64,000 nucleotides of DNA from the NCBI GenBank assembly GCA_035606695.1, contig DATNEW010000049.1, positions 1 to 64,000 on the forward strand. The letters are read 5' to 3'. Made by a program: the position numbers and the translations under genes. The notes under the pieces were generated by a model. That model made no database searches. It saw only the letters and a program-made list of their open reading frames with translations, and was not told where the DNA came from. Positions 1-5,840 of this stretch are shown here, in pieces; the first letter of the stretch is position 1, and each line of letters opens with the position of its first letter. The DNA is from Gemmatimonadaceae bacterium (GTDB lineage: Bacteria > Gemmatimonadota > Gemmatimonadetes > Gemmatimonadales > Gemmatimonadaceae).

Positions 1-75
1 GACGCGAACGACGCGAACGAAAAGAACGATACGAACGGCGCGACGCGGCGCCAAACCGACGGCGACACCGCGACG

Positions 76-1104
76 GTGAACGCCGCTCGGCGGGCATCGG
101 CGGAGTCGCATGAAGGACGCCCGCATCTGATCGTCGTCGAAGACGATCCCGAGCTCGCGCGCACGCTCGTCGATTGGCTCGAGCAGGGCCGGTATCGGAC
201 GACGCTATTCCCGAGCGGAGGAGCAGCGATCGCTCAGCTCGCGCTGCTGCAGTTCGACGGGGTGATCTGCGACGCCGACGTGTCCGACGCGAAGGGAGTC
301 GAAATGCTTCGCACGAGCAAGTCCGTTCGGCCACTCGTGCCGGTCATGATCATCACCTCCGATCGCTCCAACCAGATCGCGTCGGAGGCCGTGCGCAACC
401 ACGCGGACGAGATGCTCCTCAAACCCTTCGATCACGACGTCCTTCTCCGACGGCTCCAGGATATGATCGTCACGGGTCGCGCGGCACGCCGAGCCGGACC
501 GCGAACGGTTCTCGCGATCAGCGCGCACCCCGATGATGCGGAGATCGGTGTCGGCGGCACGCTCATGGGCCACATCGCCACGGGCGACCGCGTCATTCAT
601 CTCGTGCTGACCGATGGCGAGGGCGGCGGCGCTCGGGAAGATCGAATCGCCGAGGTGGAAGCGGCGGCGGCATCGATGGGCGTGGTGCTTCGCCGCGCGA
701 GTCTTCCGGACGGGTGTCTCGCGGACACGATGGAAACCGTCGCCGCTGTGGAGGAGATCATTCGAGAATACTCACCGTCGCTCATGTACATCCATTCCGA
801 GCACGACACGCATCAGGATCATCGAACGGCGCATCATGTGGCGATGGTCGCCGCTCGCAACGTGCCGTTCGTCTACGCGTATCAGGCGCCAAGCTCCACC
901 GTCGACTTTCGGCCGGCGCGCTTCATCGACATCGCGCGGCAACTCGACCGAAAGATCGACGTCCTGAGACTCTTTCGCTCGCAAGCGCCGATCCGGGCGT
1001 ACCTCGCCGACGATCTCATTCGCGCGACCGCGCGCTACTGGGGACGCTTCGCCGGACACAGCGTCGTCGAACCGCTCGAAGTGATTCGGCAGTTGTCACA
1101 ATGA
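76..1104 (+). CDS. Response-regulator receiver fused to PIG-L/LmbE-type de-N-acetylase
   Basis: Two domains are visible. Residues 17-127 form a CheY-like receiver with acid residues E22-D23-D24, phosphoacceptor D66 (VICDADV), T94 and K116 (LLKPF). Residues 143-340 form a PIG-L/LmbE zinc hydrolase with AHPDD at 150-154 and HQDH at 246-249. The family removes N-acetyl groups from GlcNAc-type sugars, so a phosphorylation-controlled sugar deacetylase is inferred. GTG 76 is the first start seen, but the frame stays open to base 1 with an Asp/Ala/Asn-rich stretch, so the gene may begin outside the window. Its stop overlaps the next start (ATGA). The substrate is unknown. E. coli YaiS is the closest contextual parallel. 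Confidence 0.85.
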   Translation: MNAARRASAESHEGRPHLIVVEDDPELARTLVDWLEQGRYRTTLFPSGGAAIAQLALLQFDGVICDADVSDAKGVEMLRTSKSVRPLVPVMIITSDRSNQIASEAVRNHADEMLLKPFDHDVLLRRLQDMIVTGRAARRAGPRTVLAISAHPDDAEIGVGGTLMGHIATGDRVIHLVLTDGEGGGAREDRIAEVEAAAASMGVVLRRASLPDGCLADTMETVAAVEEIIREYSPSLMYIHSEHDTHQDHRTAHHVAMVAARNVPFVYAYQAPSSTVDFRPARFIDIARQLDRKIDVLRLFRSQAPIRAYLADDLIRATARYWGRFAGHSVVEPLEVIRQLSQ

Positions 1105-2153
1105 ACGAGCGCATGGGCGACACGGAGCGCGCGCTGCGCGTGCTCGTGACCGGAGGCGGCGGACCGTCGGCGATCAGTTTCATGCAAGCCGTCTCGGGCA
1201 ACGACGTCGAGCTGTTCGCCGCGGACTGCGACCCGTACGCGTCGGGACTCTACCTGGTGCCGCGCGGCAACCGCGTGATCGTGCATCGAGGGGACGATTC
1301 ACGCTTCATCGAGCATCTCCTCGCGGCGTGCGCGGTGCATCGCATCGAGGTTCTGGTTCCGACGGTCGATCTCGAGCTGGGCAAAGTGGCGGCGGCCCGG
1401 GACGCGTTCCAGGCGGCCGGCACGGCGGTGCTCGTCGCGAGCTCGGCGACACTCGATTGTTGTCTCGACAAGTGGGACCTCGTTCGTGTCTGCCGCAGCG
1501 TGTGCCCCACGCCGCATTCGGCGCCATACGACTCCTCCTTCGACGACGTTGGGTGGGGTTATCCATTTTTCGTGAAGCCGCGTCGCGGCGCGGGCGGCAA
1601 CGGCGCGCAGCTCGTCGTGAATCCGGCGATGCTCGGCGGGCTGCCGCGCGACGGATCGCTCATCGTGCAGGAGTTTCTGACCGGCGAGGAGTTCTCGGTC
1701 GACGTGCTCTCGGATTGCGCCATGAACGTGATCGCCGTGGTCCCGCGAGTGCGCCTGCGAATCAACTCGGGCATCGCCGTATGCGGCCGAACCCTGCATG
1801 ACGAAATACTCGATCGTCAGGCGCGGTCGGTCGCGCGGCGCATTGGCTTGGCGTACATCGCGAACATTCAGTTCCGTCGCGATGCCGCGGGCGTCGCCAA
1901 GCTGCTCGATGTGAATGTGCGCTTTCCGGGAACGATGCCGCTCACGATCGCCGCCGGTGTCAACATGCCGCGCCTCGCGCTCGATCTCGTCGCGAAGCGC
2001 GCCGTGCCGCGAGATGCCGGAACGTTTCACGATGTGGGAATGGTGCGGGTGTGGCGCGAGCACTTCGTGCCGACGTCGGAATTCGACGAGCTCGTGGCGT
2101 CGGCGGCGACGGTCGCCAGTTCCACGCCGGGCGCGGCTACCAGCGCACGATGA
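1101..2153 (+). CDS. ATP-grasp (CarB/PylC-like) ligase
   Basis: A 350-residue protein with an N-terminal nucleotide-binding-like fold (VLVTGGGGPSAIS) followed by an ATP-grasp domain. The glycine-rich ATP loop is near residue 155 (FVKPRRGAGGNGA), with a QEFLTGEEFSVDV segment and the Mg-binding Asp/Asn near LLDVNVRFPG. ATP-grasp enzymes join a carboxylate to an amine, thiol or similar group through an acyl phosphate. It starts at ATG 1101 inside the stop of the receiver/PIG-L gene, so the two are probably translationally coupled and act on related substrates. Its 3' end overlaps the converging barrel gene by 17 bases. The exact substrate cannot be assigned. Confidence 0.8.
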   Translation: MNERMGDTERALRVLVTGGGGPSAISFMQAVSGNDVELFAADCDPYASGLYLVPRGNRVIVHRGDDSRFIEHLLAACAVHRIEVLVPTVDLELGKVAAARDAFQAAGTAVLVASSATLDCCLDKWDLVRVCRSVCPTPHSAPYDSSFDDVGWGYPFFVKPRRGAGGNGAQLVVNPAMLGGLPRDGSLIVQEFLTGEEFSVDVLSDCAMNVIAVVPRVRLRINSGIAVCGRTLHDEILDRQARSVARRIGLAYIANIQFRRDAAGVAKLLDVNVRFPGTMPLTIAAGVNMPRLALDLVAKRAVPRDAGTFHDVGMVRVWREHFVPTSEFDELVASAATVASSTPGAATSAR

Positions 2154-3228
2154 GCCCCACCGCCATCGACCGCCGGCTGTACGCACCGGTACGCGACGCA
2201 AGCTCCACGCGGAGGCCCTCCCACGGAGTGATCATCGCCGTCGCACCGGCGACGGCGGTCGTTGCCGACAGTCGGTCATCGAGATCGCGGACGACACCCA
2301 ATCGAATGGCAAACGGCCGCGCGGGCGCGCGTTCCCAGAACGCGCGCAGCTGCCCGCGCGCTTCGAGCGGCGATGGTTCCACACCGCGCGTCGCGACCAG
2401 CGTGAGCGTTTGACGGTCCGCGATCGCCGTCGCCGCCCCGAGGCTGAACTGCGTCGCGCCGTTCGCGCCGCTGATCGGCCGGATGCCCGCGAGCAGCGTC
2501 ACGCGCGAGGCGAGGCGATACGCCGCATCGGTCCAGAGAAAAGTCGCGCGTTCCTGCGGGGTGGACCACTCTTCCATGCGCGCGGTCATCCAGAGCGCGG
2601 TGGTCGGATGAACCACGACTCCGGCTCCGACTACACTAGCCCGCGTCGAAGCGAGCGGGTCCGCGCGCAAGACGACTCCTTCGGTGGGATCGCCGGCCGC
2701 CAGGGCGCCGACGCGCGCCAGGACCGTGACGACGGACGTGAGCTCGCCGGTGAATTCGATGTTTCCTTCGACGCCCGTCACGGCACCGCCGGGCCGGCCT
2801 GGCGCATCGATCCTCGCGCCACCGCCACTGACGTCGAGCGACCACGGTCGCTCCCACGCAAGCAGCGCCAGCGCCGAGCGCGCCTCGGCGAGCGATGGTT
2901 CGTGGGCCAAGGCCGCGCGATACCATGCTCGCGCCTCGCTGAGACGTCCAACGCCGCGCGCAACGAAGCCGCGGCCCAGCAACGGCTCGATGGCGTCGGG
3001 CTCTTCGCGTTGGAGAGCCGCAAAGCCCTCGTCCGCGCGCTCCCAGTCGCCCGCCCACGCAATCTCCCACACCGCGAGCGTGCGCGGACCCCACGTCGAG
3101 TCGACGAGCTCCGGATGCACACGCGGATCGCTGGCCGGAGTCTGAGCGGAGAGATGCTTGGGCGCGAGCGCACACAGGACCGCAGCCATCAGCAGCTGGG
3201 CTCCTCGATGACTCCGATAGCGTTTCAC
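2137..3228 (-). CDS. TPR plus outer-membrane beta-barrel protein (YaiO/PgaA-like)
   Basis: A 363-residue protein with a cleavable signal peptide (cut near LSAQ, residue 29). About 100 residues of TPR-like helices follow (WERADEGFAALQREEPDAIE, then LSEARAWYRAAL). The rest is about 200 residues of alternating polar/hydrophobic strands ending in an aromatic residue (IVRW), as outer-membrane barrels do. TPR plus barrel is the architecture of YaiO and of the larger poly-GlcNAc exporter PgaA. It lies inside the glycosyltransferase locus but on the opposite strand, 8 bases from the divergent PHP gene. Inferred role: surface polysaccharide passage or anchoring. The barrel is short for a 16-strand PgaA. 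Confidence 0.65.
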   Translation of the reverse strand: MKRYRSHRGAQLLMAAVLCALAPKHLSAQTPASDPRVHPELVDSTWGPRTLAVWEIAWAGDWERADEGFAALQREEPDAIEPLLGRGFVARGVGRLSEARAWYRAALAHEPSLAEARSALALLAWERPWSLDVSGGGARIDAPGRPGGAVTGVEGNIEFTGELTSVVTVLARVGALAAGDPTEGVVLRADPLASTRASVVGAGVVVHPTTALWMTARMEEWSTPQERATFLWTDAAYRLASRVTLLAGIRPISGANGATQFSLGAATAIADRQTLTLVATRGVEPSPLEARGQLRAFWERAPARPFAIRLGVVRDLDDRLSATTAVAGATAMITPWEGLRVELASRTGAYSRRSMAVGLIVRW

Positions 3229-3236
3229 AATGCTCC

Positions 3237-3983
3237 ATGGATGGACGCGCGATGAGCGATCTGATCGCTCTGATCGATCTGGCGGAGGATCGTCACGTCC
3301 ATTCGACCTTCTCGGACGGCGCCGATACCTTGGAGTGCAATCTTGCGGCCGCGCGCCTCGCTGGCCTCCACCGCCTGGGCTGTGTCGATCATGTGCGGCG
3401 GGACAGCGACTACGTCGGCCGGTACGTGCAAGCGGTTCGCGCGCTGTCGTCGGACGGCGTGGTGCTTACCGCGGGCCTCGAGGCGAAAATACTCGACGCC
3501 GACGGTGCGCTCGATATGCCGGACACGTTCTCACTCGCCGACGCCGTCTACATCGCGGACCACCAGATGCCGACGCGCGACGGTCCGCGGTCCCCGCGCG
3601 CCATCCGGGACGAGCTGTCCGCGGGCCGCCTGCTCGCCGCCGACGCGATCGAGCTGATCGTCGTCGCCACGGAGCGGGCGCTGCGACGATACGCCGGCAC
3701 GCCGCTGGTGATCGCGCATCTGTTCAGCATTCTGCCAAAGATCGGGGTCGAAGAGGCAGCCGTCCCGAGCGCAGCGATAGCTCGGCTCGCGACCGCGGCC
3801 GCGGACGTCGGTGCGCTGATCGAAGTCAGCGAACGCTGGCGCTGTCCTTCGATCGACACGGTGCGCGTGTTTCACCGGCACGGCGTCACGATCGTCGCGA
3901 GCACCGACAGCCATCGCGCCGAAACCATCGGTTGCTACGACTACGTTCGCTGGCTCGCGGCCGCATGCTCCGGCGATGCGTAA
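3237..3983 (+). CDS. PHP-domain metal-dependent hydrolase
   Basis: A PHP (polymerase and histidinol phosphatase) domain. The first metal motif HVHSTFSDG is near residue 20. Later motifs include CVDHVRRD, a Glu in GLEAKI, ADHQMP, IAHLF, and the C-terminal STDSHRAE with its metal-binding Asp-His. PHP enzymes hydrolyse phosphoesters. Histidinol phosphatase is one member, but no his genes are nearby, so that role is not supported. ATG 3252 is an alternative start five codons later. The gene overlaps the start of the GT2 gene by 8 bases, placing it in the polysaccharide locus, where it may dephosphorylate a sugar or lipid intermediate (inference). Confidence 0.75.
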   Translation: MDGRAMSDLIALIDLAEDRHVHSTFSDGADTLECNLAAARLAGLHRLGCVDHVRRDSDYVGRYVQAVRALSSDGVVLTAGLEAKILDADGALDMPDTFSLADAVYIADHQMPTRDGPRSPRAIRDELSAGRLLAADAIELIVVATERALRRYAGTPLVIAHLFSILPKIGVEEAAVPSAAIARLATAAADVGALIEVSERWRCPSIDTVRVFHRHGVTIVASTDSHRAETIGCYDYVRWLAAACSGDA

Positions 3984-5673
3984 GGTGCGAAAGGTTCGCA
4001 CGGCGCGGCCGCCAGGCGACCGACGACCAAGCCGCTGGGCCCTCTCGCGCGCGATGCGCCGAGATGCGACGACGCGGCGGACCACGAACGTGCGATTGCA
4101 CGTGCTCGCATACGCGCTGCTCAACGTGCTCGCGGCACAGATCGCGGTGTTCGCGCTGCTGCCGCGAGCGCCGCGCCGCGTGGACCTCACGCTGTTTTGC
4201 ATCGCGCTCGTGTTCGCGGGCGCCACGCCGGTGCTCGCGTCGGCGCTTCAATACCTCGTCATCGGACTGCATCGCTTTCATACCGGCTATCGCCGGCTCA
4301 CGCCATTTTATCCGCGCACGGCGATCGTCGTCCCGGCGTGGAACGAAGCGGCCGTGATTGGCACGACCATCGACCAGCTGCTGCACATGTCGTATCCCGC
4401 CGAGCGGTTGCGGGTCTACGTCGTCGACGATGCATCGACCGACGCCACGCCGGACATCGTACGCGCCAAAGCGCTCGATGATCCCGAGCGCGTGGTTCAC
4501 ATTCGGCGAGTCGAGGGCGGGCAGGGCAAAGCGCATACGCTCAACGCCGGCATCGATCGCGCGCTCGCGGATGATTGGGCGCAAGCCATTCTGATCATCG
4601 ATGCCGACGTGCTGTTCGAGAAAGACGCGTTGCGCAAGATGACGCGGCACTTGTCGGATCGCACGGTCGGCGCCGTGACGGCGTACATCAAGGAAGGCAC
4701 GCCGAACGCGAATTATCTCAACCGATTCATTACGTACGAATACATCACCGCGCAGGCCGCGGCGCGCCGCGCGCAAAACGTCTTCGGCGCGCTCGCCTGT
4801 TTGGCCGGCGGCGCGCAACTGCATTCGCGACAAAACATGATCGACATCGGCGGCCGCATCGACACGTCGACGCTGGCCGAAGACACGGTGACCACGTTCA
4901 AGACGCAGCACGCCGGCAACCGCGCGGTCTTCGAGCCCAACGCCGTCGTCTGGGCCGAGGAGCCGAAGGATCTCGCGGCACTGTGGAAGCAGCGCATGCG
5001 CTGGGGACGCGGCAACGTCGAGATCACGATCCAGTTCGCGCACCTGTGGACGCAGTCGAACGGATTCGGCCGCCTTGCCGGCCTACCGATCAAGATGCTC
5101 TGGTTCAGCGTGTTGCTCATGCCGATCGTCATGTTTGGATCCGCCGTCGGCCTGATCGGCTTGTATTTCATCAATGCCGGCACGGCGTGGAGCGTATTTC
5201 GCGCGCTGTGGATCTGGAGCTTGTTGGTGTACGTGTTTCAGACGGCAATGGCGTTCGCCGTCGATCCCGGCGCCGCCAAGCGATCGTGGTTTCAAGCGCT
5301 GACGTTTCCGGGAATCGTGTCGCTCGCCATCATGGCGCACAGCGCCTGCCCGCCGATCGTCGACGCGACATTGGCGCGCTGGCTGCTCGCGCTGGGCTTG
5401 GAGCCTCGTTCCAACCTGGCGGTCACGTTGTCGCTGGCCATGTATGCCTGGTGTTTTCTCTGCATTCCGGCGGCGTACGTTGGCAAGCTTTGCGCGGAAC
5501 ATCGGACGACGAAATGGCTGACGCCATTTTGCGTCTACATCGCCGGGTACGGTCCATTCCTGTGCGCGGTGACGTTCGCCGCGTATGTGCAAGAGCTCAT
5601 GAACAAGCAGGCAGTGTGGGACAAGACGATCAAGACCGGCGCCGTAGTCGTGCCGGACGCGGCGGCGAGATGA
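3976..5673 (+). CDS. Membrane processive glycosyltransferase, family GT2 (YaiP/PgaC-like)
   Basis: A 565-residue integral-membrane GT2. Two N-terminal membrane segments (about residues 40-90) precede a cytoplasmic GT-A domain carrying VPAWNE, VVDDAST, the metal motif DAD (IIDADVLFE), the base motif ED (LAEDTVTT) and the processivity motif QRMRW. About five C-terminal membrane segments follow. The whole D, DxD, ED, QxxRW set is present, so it is predicted to polymerise and translocate a beta-linked sugar such as GlcNAc or glucose. Start 3976 overlaps the PHP stop. ATG 4054 would remove a basic leader of 26 residues and is also possible. The next small gene overlaps its stop. Confidence 0.88.
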   Translation: MRKVRKVRTARPPGDRRPSRWALSRAMRRDATTRRTTNVRLHVLAYALLNVLAAQIAVFALLPRAPRRVDLTLFCIALVFAGATPVLASALQYLVIGLHRFHTGYRRLTPFYPRTAIVVPAWNEAAVIGTTIDQLLHMSYPAERLRVYVVDDASTDATPDIVRAKALDDPERVVHIRRVEGGQGKAHTLNAGIDRALADDWAQAILIIDADVLFEKDALRKMTRHLSDRTVGAVTAYIKEGTPNANYLNRFITYEYITAQAAARRAQNVFGALACLAGGAQLHSRQNMIDIGGRIDTSTLAEDTVTTFKTQHAGNRAVFEPNAVVWAEEPKDLAALWKQRMRWGRGNVEITIQFAHLWTQSNGFGRLAGLPIKMLWFSVLLMPIVMFGSAVGLIGLYFINAGTAWSVFRALWIWSLLVYVFQTAMAFAVDPGAAKRSWFQALTFPGIVSLAIMAHSACPPIVDATLARWLLALGLEPRSNLAVTLSLAMYAWCFLCIPAAYVGKLCAEHRTTKWLTPFCVYIAGYGPFLCAVTFAAYVQELMNKQAVWDKTIKTGAVVVPDAAAR

Positions 5674-5840
5674 CGTCATCCCCAAACGAAGAACCGGCCG
5701 CGCTGGATCCCGACTGGATGCGAGTCTTCGAGACGGAGCTCGCACATGACGATCGCGTAGAGCGCCGCCTCCTCGTGCGAGAACTGGCGATCGTTCTCGG
5801 CCTGTGCCTCGTGGTGGTGGCGTGGTCGATCCTGATTTAA
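5670..5840 (+). CDS. Small single-pass membrane protein of the glycosyltransferase locus
   Basis: A 56-residue ORF starting at ATG 5670 within the TGA of the GT2 gene (ATGA overlap). It has an acidic, soluble N-terminal half (EEPAALDPDWMRVFETELAH) and one C-terminal hydrophobic segment (IVLGLCLVVVAWSIL) ending at the stop. I recognise no family. The coupling to a PgaC/YaiP-type synthase recalls small accessory subunits such as PgaD, but it is much shorter, so the role of synthase partner is inference only. It is the last gene of the locus. A 149-base gap before accD shows no clear gene or terminator. Confidence 0.6.
   Translation: MTSSPNEEPAALDPDWMRVFETELAHDDRVERRLLVRELAIVLGLCLVVVAWSILI

What the first reader, a model, noticed from the sequence alone, without database searches (positions are those of the whole stretch)
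76..5840. Polysaccharide locus with a YaiS/YaiP/YaiO-like core extended by receiver, ATP-grasp and PHP proteins
The window shows a PIG-L deacetylase, a processive GT2 and a TPR plus beta-barrel protein within 6 kb. In E. coli, yaiS (PIG-L), yaiP (GT2) and yaiO (outer-membrane) are neighbours of unclear role. Here the trio is joined by an ATP-grasp ligase, a PHP hydrolase and a small membrane protein, mostly with 4- to 17-base overlaps. I infer a phospho-regulated synthesis, modification and export system for a deacetylated amino-sugar polymer, perhaps with an amide-linked decoration by the ATP-grasp enzyme.
Basis: partly seen in the sequence, partly recalled or inferred. Interest (0 to 1): 0.72.

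Follow-up and report, generated by a model that had tools for sequence, protein, structure and literature searches.

The report
Conserved signal-controlled sugar-polymer synthesis cassette
Five neighbouring genes (a signal-controlled sugar deacetylase, a ligase, a phosphatase, a polymer synthase and a tiny membrane protein) recur together in distantly related soil and water bacteria, which points to an undescribed way of building a chemically decorated surface polysaccharide; here they are joined by an outer-membrane-type export protein.

Summary
The six genes are real, but the TPR/β-rich gene lies on the minus strand, inserted between the ATP-grasp and PHP genes. RR-PIG-L, ATP-grasp, PHP and processive GT2 genes lie in one cluster in 19 other loci, usually with a single-TM microprotein directly after GT2, in Actinomycetota and Thermoleophilia. 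Leifsonia and Rhodothermia keep all four parts but place one elsewhere in the genome. The gene trees agree (Mantel r 0.74-0.89) and the catalytic residues are conserved. Histidine kinases and response regulators border most loci, which fits the receiver domain fused to PIG-L. The cassette is rare and patchy, so probably horizontally spread. The GT2 is PgaC/hyaluronan-synthase-like rather than YaiP-like. The PIG-L is YaiS-like. The exported protein shows no YaiO similarity, but it recurs in a relative beside BcsB and GGDEF-EAL genes. Best reading: a two-component-controlled, synthase-dependent exopolysaccharide system in which an amino-sugar precursor is deacetylated, re-acylated by the ATP-grasp ligase and dephosphorylated before or during polymerisation. 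Polymer identity and reaction order are inferred. I found no description of it in the papers searched.

The parts
1..1104 (+). RR-PIG-L: receiver domain fused to a PIG-L (CE14-type) deacetylase; GTG start at 76, frame open to the contig edge
   Evidence: Pfam PF00072 1.9e-17 and PF02585 6.7e-24; E22, D23, D66, K116 of the receiver and H151, D153, D154, E156, H246, D248, H249 of PIG-L invariant in 10 sequences; no TM segment
1101..2153 (+). ATP-grasp ligase of the PRK12767 / PylC-like group
   Evidence: PF15632 2.6e-27, PF21360 2.3e-9; closest solved structure 2pn1 3.9e-27, PylC 0.0012; 44-48% identity to cassette homologues; 4-base overlap with RR-PIG-L
2137..3228 (-). Exported TPR plus beta-rich protein, putative outer-membrane export part; opposite strand, diderm loci only
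   Evidence: weak TPR matches, TPR helices modelled but beta part not, amphipathic-beta signal z=2.8; homologue 40% in G864 beside ATP-grasp and PHP genes; TPR-barrel-like gene beside GT2 in Rhodothermales L064
3237..3983 (+). PHP-type metallophosphoesterase
   Evidence: PF02811 1.1e-3, PRK08392 6.2e-16; 42-53% identity to 10 cassette homologues with H20, H22, D27, H52, E82, H109, H161, D224, H226 invariant
3976..5673 (+). Membrane-embedded processive GT2 synthase
   Evidence: best NCBIfam PgaC_IcaA 2.8e-37, below its equivalog cut-off; DD, DxD, ED and QxxRW invariant in 15 sequences; AlphaFold pLDDT 81; full-length fold matches hyaluronan and cellulose synthases
5670..5840 (+). Single-TM microprotein, putative GT2 partner subunit
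   Evidence: 4-base overlap with GT2; TM segment at residues 32-56; family with a (D/N)RRxERxL-type motif before the TM helix found after GT2, or after PHP in Leifsonia, in most loci

Best explanation
A two-component-controlled, synthase-dependent exopolysaccharide system. A phosphorelay (histidine kinase and response regulators beside most copies) acts through the receiver domain on the fused cytoplasmic PIG-L deacetylase, which removes an N-acetyl group from an amino-sugar precursor (a nucleotide-, phospho- or lipid-linked GlcNAc-type sugar). The ATP-grasp ligase joins a carboxylic acid, perhaps an amino acid, to the freed amine through an acyl-phosphate. The PHP enzyme removes a phosphate from the intermediate or from a side product. 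The PgaC/hyaluronan-synthase-like GT2, with the single-TM microprotein as subunit, polymerises and extrudes the chain. In diderms a TPR/beta outer-membrane protein, and in one relative BcsB, carries it out. Shown: gene linkage, co-inheritance, intact active sites, processive GT2 motifs and fold, no TM segment in the three soluble enzymes, two-component neighbours. Inferred: substrate, reaction order, amide decoration, export, control of PIG-L by phosphorylation.
For: Four-gene core in one cluster in 19 loci besides the window. Leifsonia keeps RR-PIG-L > ATP-grasp > PHP > small TM > RR > HK at one place with GT2 elsewhere; three Rhodothermia genomes keep ATP-grasp > PHP > GT2 with RR-PIG-L on another contig at E about 1e-137. 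Gene trees agree, Mantel r 0.74-0.89, p<=0.001. Active sites conserved. GT2 nearest PgaC, hyaluronan and cellulose synthases. Kinases or receivers confirmed by Pfam in L063, L065, L068, L069, L135 and L162. GlmS overlaps PHP in L062, pointing to hexosamine supply. BcsB and GGDEF-EAL in L176. A divergent Arthrobacter plasmid keeps TM-anchored PIG-L > ATP-grasp > PgaC-like GT2 with 1- and 4-base overlaps.
Against: No polymer or enzyme activity is known for any member. GT2 also resembles MftF, which decorates a small molecule. The three cytoplasmic enzymes do not by themselves show that the product is a polymer. GlmS and BcsB linkage each rest on one genome. The beta-barrel is not modelled confidently. 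PHP is missing between ATP-grasp and GT2 in the Bacteroidetes locus L082 and in L007.
Confidence: 0.55

Rival explanations
1. The cassette makes a small glycoconjugate (mycothiol-, bacillithiol- or mycofactocin-like), not a polymer: GT2 glycosylates an acceptor, PHP dephosphorylates it, PIG-L deacetylates the sugar, and the ATP-grasp ligase adds an amino acid.
For: The enzyme set matches the glycosyltransferase / phosphatase / PIG-L / ligase logic of mycothiol synthesis (established pathway knowledge); PIG-L's best NCBIfam match is BshB1; in L068 the GT2's second-best NCBIfam match is MftF, 3.2e-31; the modifying enzymes have no TM segment.
Against: GT2 is multi-TM with QxxRW and aligns over its length with hyaluronan and cellulose synthases; exported TPR/beta protein and BcsB neighbours in diderm loci.
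Confidence: 0.2
2. PIG-L and ATP-grasp modify a lipid-linked primer or cell-envelope glycolipid that GT2 extends, and PHP is its phosphatase.
For: In the divergent Arthrobacter operon PIG-L carries three N-terminal TM helices, placing it at the membrane; eukaryotic PIG-L acts on a lipid-linked GlcNAc (established knowledge).
Against: The cassette PIG-L has no TM segment; no lipid-processing gene was noticed recurring beside the cassette.
Confidence: 0.13
3. A plain YaiS/YaiP/YaiO-type locus in which ATP-grasp and PHP are chance neighbours.
For: PIG-L resembles YaiS (31% over 159 aa).
Against: ATP-grasp and PHP are among the most consistently linked parts and recur in phyla far apart; GT2 is closer to PgaC than YaiP and the exported protein has no YaiO similarity.
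Confidence: 0.03

Closest known systems
PNAG systems pgaABCD / icaADBC
   Same: PgaC-like processive GT2, TPR plus beta outer-membrane protein, small membrane partner, deacetylase in the operon
   Different: GT2 is below the PgaC/IcaA cut-off (128.6 against 422 bits); deacetylase is a cytoplasmic PIG-L fused to a receiver, not exported PgaB/IcaB; ATP-grasp and PHP have no PNAG counterpart; the microprotein is single-TM and short (mostly 46-69 aa)
E. coli yaiS-yaiP-yaiX-yaiO
   Same: YaiS-like PIG-L beside a GT2 and an outer-membrane protein; E. coli has an acyltransferase gene (yaiX, disrupted by IS2 in K-12) where this cassette has an ATP-grasp ligase, so both fit deacetylate-then-reacylate (inference)
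   Different: GT2 nearer PgaC, no YaiO homologue, no receiver domain, no PHP or ATP-grasp
Bacterial cellulose (bcs) and hyaluronan synthases
   Same: Full-length GT2 fold; BcsB and GGDEF-EAL in one relative
   Different: PIG-L, ATP-grasp and PHP absent from those systems; no PilZ domain found in the GT2
Mycothiol and bacillithiol pathways
   Same: Glycosyltransferase, PIG-L deacetylase and amide-forming ligase logic
   Different: Membrane processive GT2, ATP-grasp instead of MshC/BshC, receiver control
PRK12767 ATP-grasp plus phosphatase pairs in capsule-type loci
   Same: ATP-grasp adjacent to a phosphatase: PHP in Sinorhizobium and G114, HAD in Roseibium, Palleronia, Ruegeria and probably Rhizobium gallicum
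   Different: No RR-PIG-L or processive GT2 of this type noticed there

Membership tests
PNAG (pga/ica) biosynthesis | GT2 scoring above the PgaC/IcaA equivalog cut-off | tested here: not met
   128.6 bits against cut-off 422.3
PNAG (pga/ica) biosynthesis | exported CE4 deacetylase PgaB/IcaB | tested here: not met
   the deacetylase is a PIG-L without TM segment; no significant PgaB match
PNAG (pga/ica) biosynthesis | product is poly-beta-1,6-GlcNAc | not testable with these tools
   needs chemistry
YaiS/YaiP/YaiO locus | PIG-L homologous to YaiS | tested here: met
   31% over 159 aa, 5e-19; profile 118 bits
YaiS/YaiP/YaiO locus | GT2 closest to YaiP | tested here: not met
   PgaC 100 bits, YaiP 45 bits
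YaiS/YaiP/YaiO locus | YaiO-family outer-membrane protein | tested here: not met
   no BLAST hit to YaiO; only a weak GltE TPR match in NCBIfam
Synthase-dependent exopolysaccharide systems (general) | processive membrane GT2 with D, DxD, ED and QxxRW motifs | tested here: met
   invariant in 15 sequences; HAS/BcsA-type fold
Synthase-dependent exopolysaccharide systems (general) | TPR plus beta-barrel outer-membrane exporter in diderms | tested here: inconclusive
   TPR yes, signal-like N-terminus yes, amphipathic-beta signal modest, barrel not modelled
Synthase-dependent exopolysaccharide systems (general) | makes a secreted polymer | not testable with these tools
   needs experiment
Receiver-regulated enzyme (response regulator with enzymatic output) | conserved acidic pair, phospho-acceptor Asp and Lys in the receiver | tested here: met
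   E22, D23, D66, K116 invariant in 10 sequences; L168 and L169 have a diverged N-terminus, without a Pfam receiver match in L169
ATP-grasp PRK12767 / PylC-like ligases | ATP-grasp fold residues and family profile | tested here: inconclusive
   PRK12767 profile 2.6e-45 but below equivalog cut-offs; ATP-site positions conserved; substrate unknown

The most novel reading that the evidence does not exclude
A new class of synthase-dependent polysaccharide whose amino sugars are deacetylated in the cytoplasm under direct two-component control and then given amide-linked (aminoacyl or other acyl) groups by an ATP-grasp ligase, making a polymer decorated before polymerisation rather than after export.
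Probability: 0.3. Interest if true: 0.78.

Novelty: new variant of a known kind. Interest (0 to 1): 0.6.

Why it matters
It is a compact, recurring and apparently undescribed cassette spanning monoderm and diderm phyla, with cultured carriers (Cellulomonas chitinilytica and C. biazotea, Leifsonia, Solirubrobacter taibaiensis). It would give a testable case of a receiver domain controlling a sugar deacetylase directly, of ATP-grasp chemistry in polymer decoration, and of one synthesis core used with and without an outer-membrane exporter. It may also suggest a role for E. coli YaiS/YaiP/YaiO.

Tried and rejected
Chance-neighbour hypothesis: rejected by recurrence. YaiP/YaiO homology as the core: rejected. 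RR-PIG-L as the sole marker: rejected, because receiver-PIG-L fusions occur in another family of the same class without ATP-grasp or GT2 nearby (mostly 26-33% identity). Leifsonia GT2 genes first looked like orphans; the rest of the cassette is elsewhere in those genomes. TPR/beta protein as a genus-typical gene: rejected, 2 of 179 family genomes, and the other one lies with ATP-grasp and PHP genes. AlphaFold on three sequences did not model the barrel. PHP against plasmids, no match. PHROGs on the exported protein, no match. BcsB-like gene in the window or C46, no match. Literature searches for this gene set found nothing that describes it; the 2020 survey of synthase-dependent EPS operons (PMC7112194) has no mention of PIG-L or ATP-grasp in its main text.

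Full report
WHAT IS THERE. The window is the start of contig C49 of an unnamed 5.9-Mb genome. Six ORFs fill bases 1-5840 before accD, folC and hisS (the last three named by me from their translations): RR-PIG-L (<1-1104 +), ATP-grasp (1101-2153 +), TPR/beta-rich exported protein (2137-3228, minus strand), PHP (3237-3983 +), GT2 (3976-5673 +) and a 56-aa single-TM protein (5670-5840 +). The RR-PIG-L frame is open to base 1 inside a (GACGCGAAC)n repeat. Contig C46 begins with the same repeat on its other strand and carries mreB-mreC-mreD-PBP2-rodA and a LuxR-type response regulator (gene names are my reading of the translations), so C46 reversed probably lies just upstream (inference).

IS IT A UNIT? 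One scan of about 85,000 species genomes with the GT2 returned 18 relatives at 47-55% identity, mostly Actinomycetota, plus Rhodothermales and Bacteroidetes. RR-PIG-L, ATP-grasp, PHP and GT2 lie next to each other in L063, L065, L066, L068, L069, L071, L076, L077 and L086, usually with short overlaps or gaps under 100 bases, at roughly 40-56% identity to the window for PIG-L, ATP-grasp, PHP and GT2. Independent scans with the ATP-grasp profile found 10 of 198 genomes in the order of Cellulomonas and 3 of 149 in the class of Solirubrobacter, each count including the centre genome. Of the 11 non-centre hits, 10 lie in the full cluster (L161-L164, L166-L171); the other, L165, has RR-PIG-L and ATP-grasp but no PHP or GT2 nearby. 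That makes 19 clusters besides the window.

SPLIT CASES. The Leifsonia genomes with a lone GT2 carry RR-PIG-L > ATP-grasp > PHP > small TM > RR > HK elsewhere, checked in three (RR and HK there by resemblance to the Pfam-tested L065 neighbours). In Rhodothermia, 4 of 196 genomes including the centre have the GT2; the three new ones carry ATP-grasp > PHP > GT2, and each has RR-PIG-L on another contig at E about 1e-137. Keeping all parts when they are not linked is stronger evidence for joint function than linkage alone. Trees of the four proteins over 20 genomes are correlated (Mantel r 0.74-0.89, p<=0.001), as expected if the set moves together; related organisms alone also raise such correlations.

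RARITY. In the window's own phylum sample the GT2 occurs in 1 of 298 genomes (E<=1e-50), the ATP-grasp in 2 and PHP in 2; the second genome, G114, has the ATP-grasp and PHP genes side by side. No other of the 58 near relatives sampled has an RR-PIG-L match at 1e-30. This patchiness suggests horizontal spread (inference).

THE EXPORTED PROTEIN. It is found in 2 of 179 genomes of the family. The other, G864 (L176), carries ATP-grasp (53%), a BcsB-family protein (PF03170, 1.9e-18), a GGDEF-EAL protein, PHP (53%) and the TPR/beta protein (40%) in one stretch; GT2 and RR-PIG-L were not found on that contig. In Rhodothermales L064, GT2 > small TM > TPR/beta-like gene faces RR-PIG-L; its similarity to the window protein is mostly in the TPR part. 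No such gene was seen in the actinobacterial loci, as expected for cells without an outer membrane. Its C-terminal part has an amphipathic-beta signal (z 2.8; homologue 2.9; controls below 0) but AlphaFold failed on it, so 'barrel' remains probable, not shown.

ACTIVE SITES. GT2: DD, DxD, ED and QxxRW invariant; the fold aligns over its length with hyaluronan synthase and cellulose synthase, while the top hit, a mannosyltransferase, covers a shorter stretch. Receiver: acidic pair, phospho-acceptor D66 and K116 invariant. PIG-L: HPDDxE and HxDH invariant. PHP: nine metal-ligand positions invariant. ATP-grasp: nucleotide-site positions conserved. None of the three soluble enzymes has a TM segment.

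REGULATION. Histidine kinases or receiver proteins were confirmed by Pfam next to the cassette in L063, L065, L068, L069, L135 and L162, and similar ORFs occur in most others. A kinase > receiver > PIG-L phosphorelay is the natural reading but has not been tested.

MECHANISM. The expected cytoplasmic location of PIG-L, ATP-grasp and PHP argues that they work on a precursor and not on exported polymer. PRK12767-type ATP-grasp genes in unrelated capsule-like loci are also paired with a phosphatase: PHP in Sinorhizobium and G114, HAD in Roseibium, Palleronia and Ruegeria, and probably in Rhizobium gallicum. That suggests a phosphorylated intermediate and that the phosphatase type is exchangeable (inference). 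GlmS overlapping PHP in L062 points to hexosamine. A divergent Arthrobacter plasmid operon keeps only PIG-L (here TM-anchored), ATP-grasp and a PgaC-like GT2, suggesting that deacetylation, ligation and polymerisation are the core. E. coli has yaiS (PIG-L), yaiP (GT2), yaiX (acyltransferase, disrupted in K-12) and yaiO; both layouts fit 'remove acetyl, add another acyl' (inference).

COMPARISON AND NOVELTY. Sequence tests exclude membership in PNAG and in a YaiS/P/O locus as such. It works like a synthase-dependent exopolysaccharide system, but its regulatory and modifying enzymes differ from those of the described ones. I found no paper that describes the set, but subscription papers and preprints were not searchable. 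Verdict: new variant of a known kind; the product is the open question.

Noticed in passing
window 1-75 and L003 (G000:C46) 1-60: Both contigs begin in a (GACGCGAAC)n / Asp-Ala-Asn repeat on opposite strands; C46 carries mreBCD-mrdA-rodA and a LuxR-type response regulator and is probably the upstream neighbour.
   Followed up: partly
window 5670-5840; L062:3918-4067; L065:5275-5451; L127:6701-6856 and others: Single-TM microprotein family with a (D/N)RRxERxL-type motif follows GT2 with a 4-base overlap; in Leifsonia it stays with the cassette although GT2 has moved.
   Followed up: partly
L007:8710-12945 (Arthrobacter sp. StoSoilB13 plasmid): Sigma-factor-like gene followed by TM-anchored PIG-L > ATP-grasp > PgaC-like GT2 > secreted protein of unknown family: a divergent relative without PHP or receiver.
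   Followed up: partly
L008-L013 and L017: PRK12767-type ATP-grasp genes in capsule-like loci are paired with a phosphatase, PHP or HAD, as if the two phosphatase folds replace each other.
   Followed up: partly
L176:3770-7395 (G864): BcsB-family and GGDEF-EAL genes lie between the ATP-grasp and PHP genes in a relative of the window genome.
   Followed up: partly
L018-L030 and L047-L059: Receiver-PIG-L fusions at mostly 26-33% identity occur in another family of the same class with no ATP-grasp or GT2 nearby; role unknown.
   Followed up: no
L063:7440-10461: Two GT2 genes in tandem at the end of the cassette, both 53% identical to the window GT2.
   Followed up: no
L168 and L169: Cassette copies whose PIG-L has a diverged N-terminus (no Pfam receiver match in L169), followed by two genes; those of L169 match no Pfam family.
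   Followed up: no
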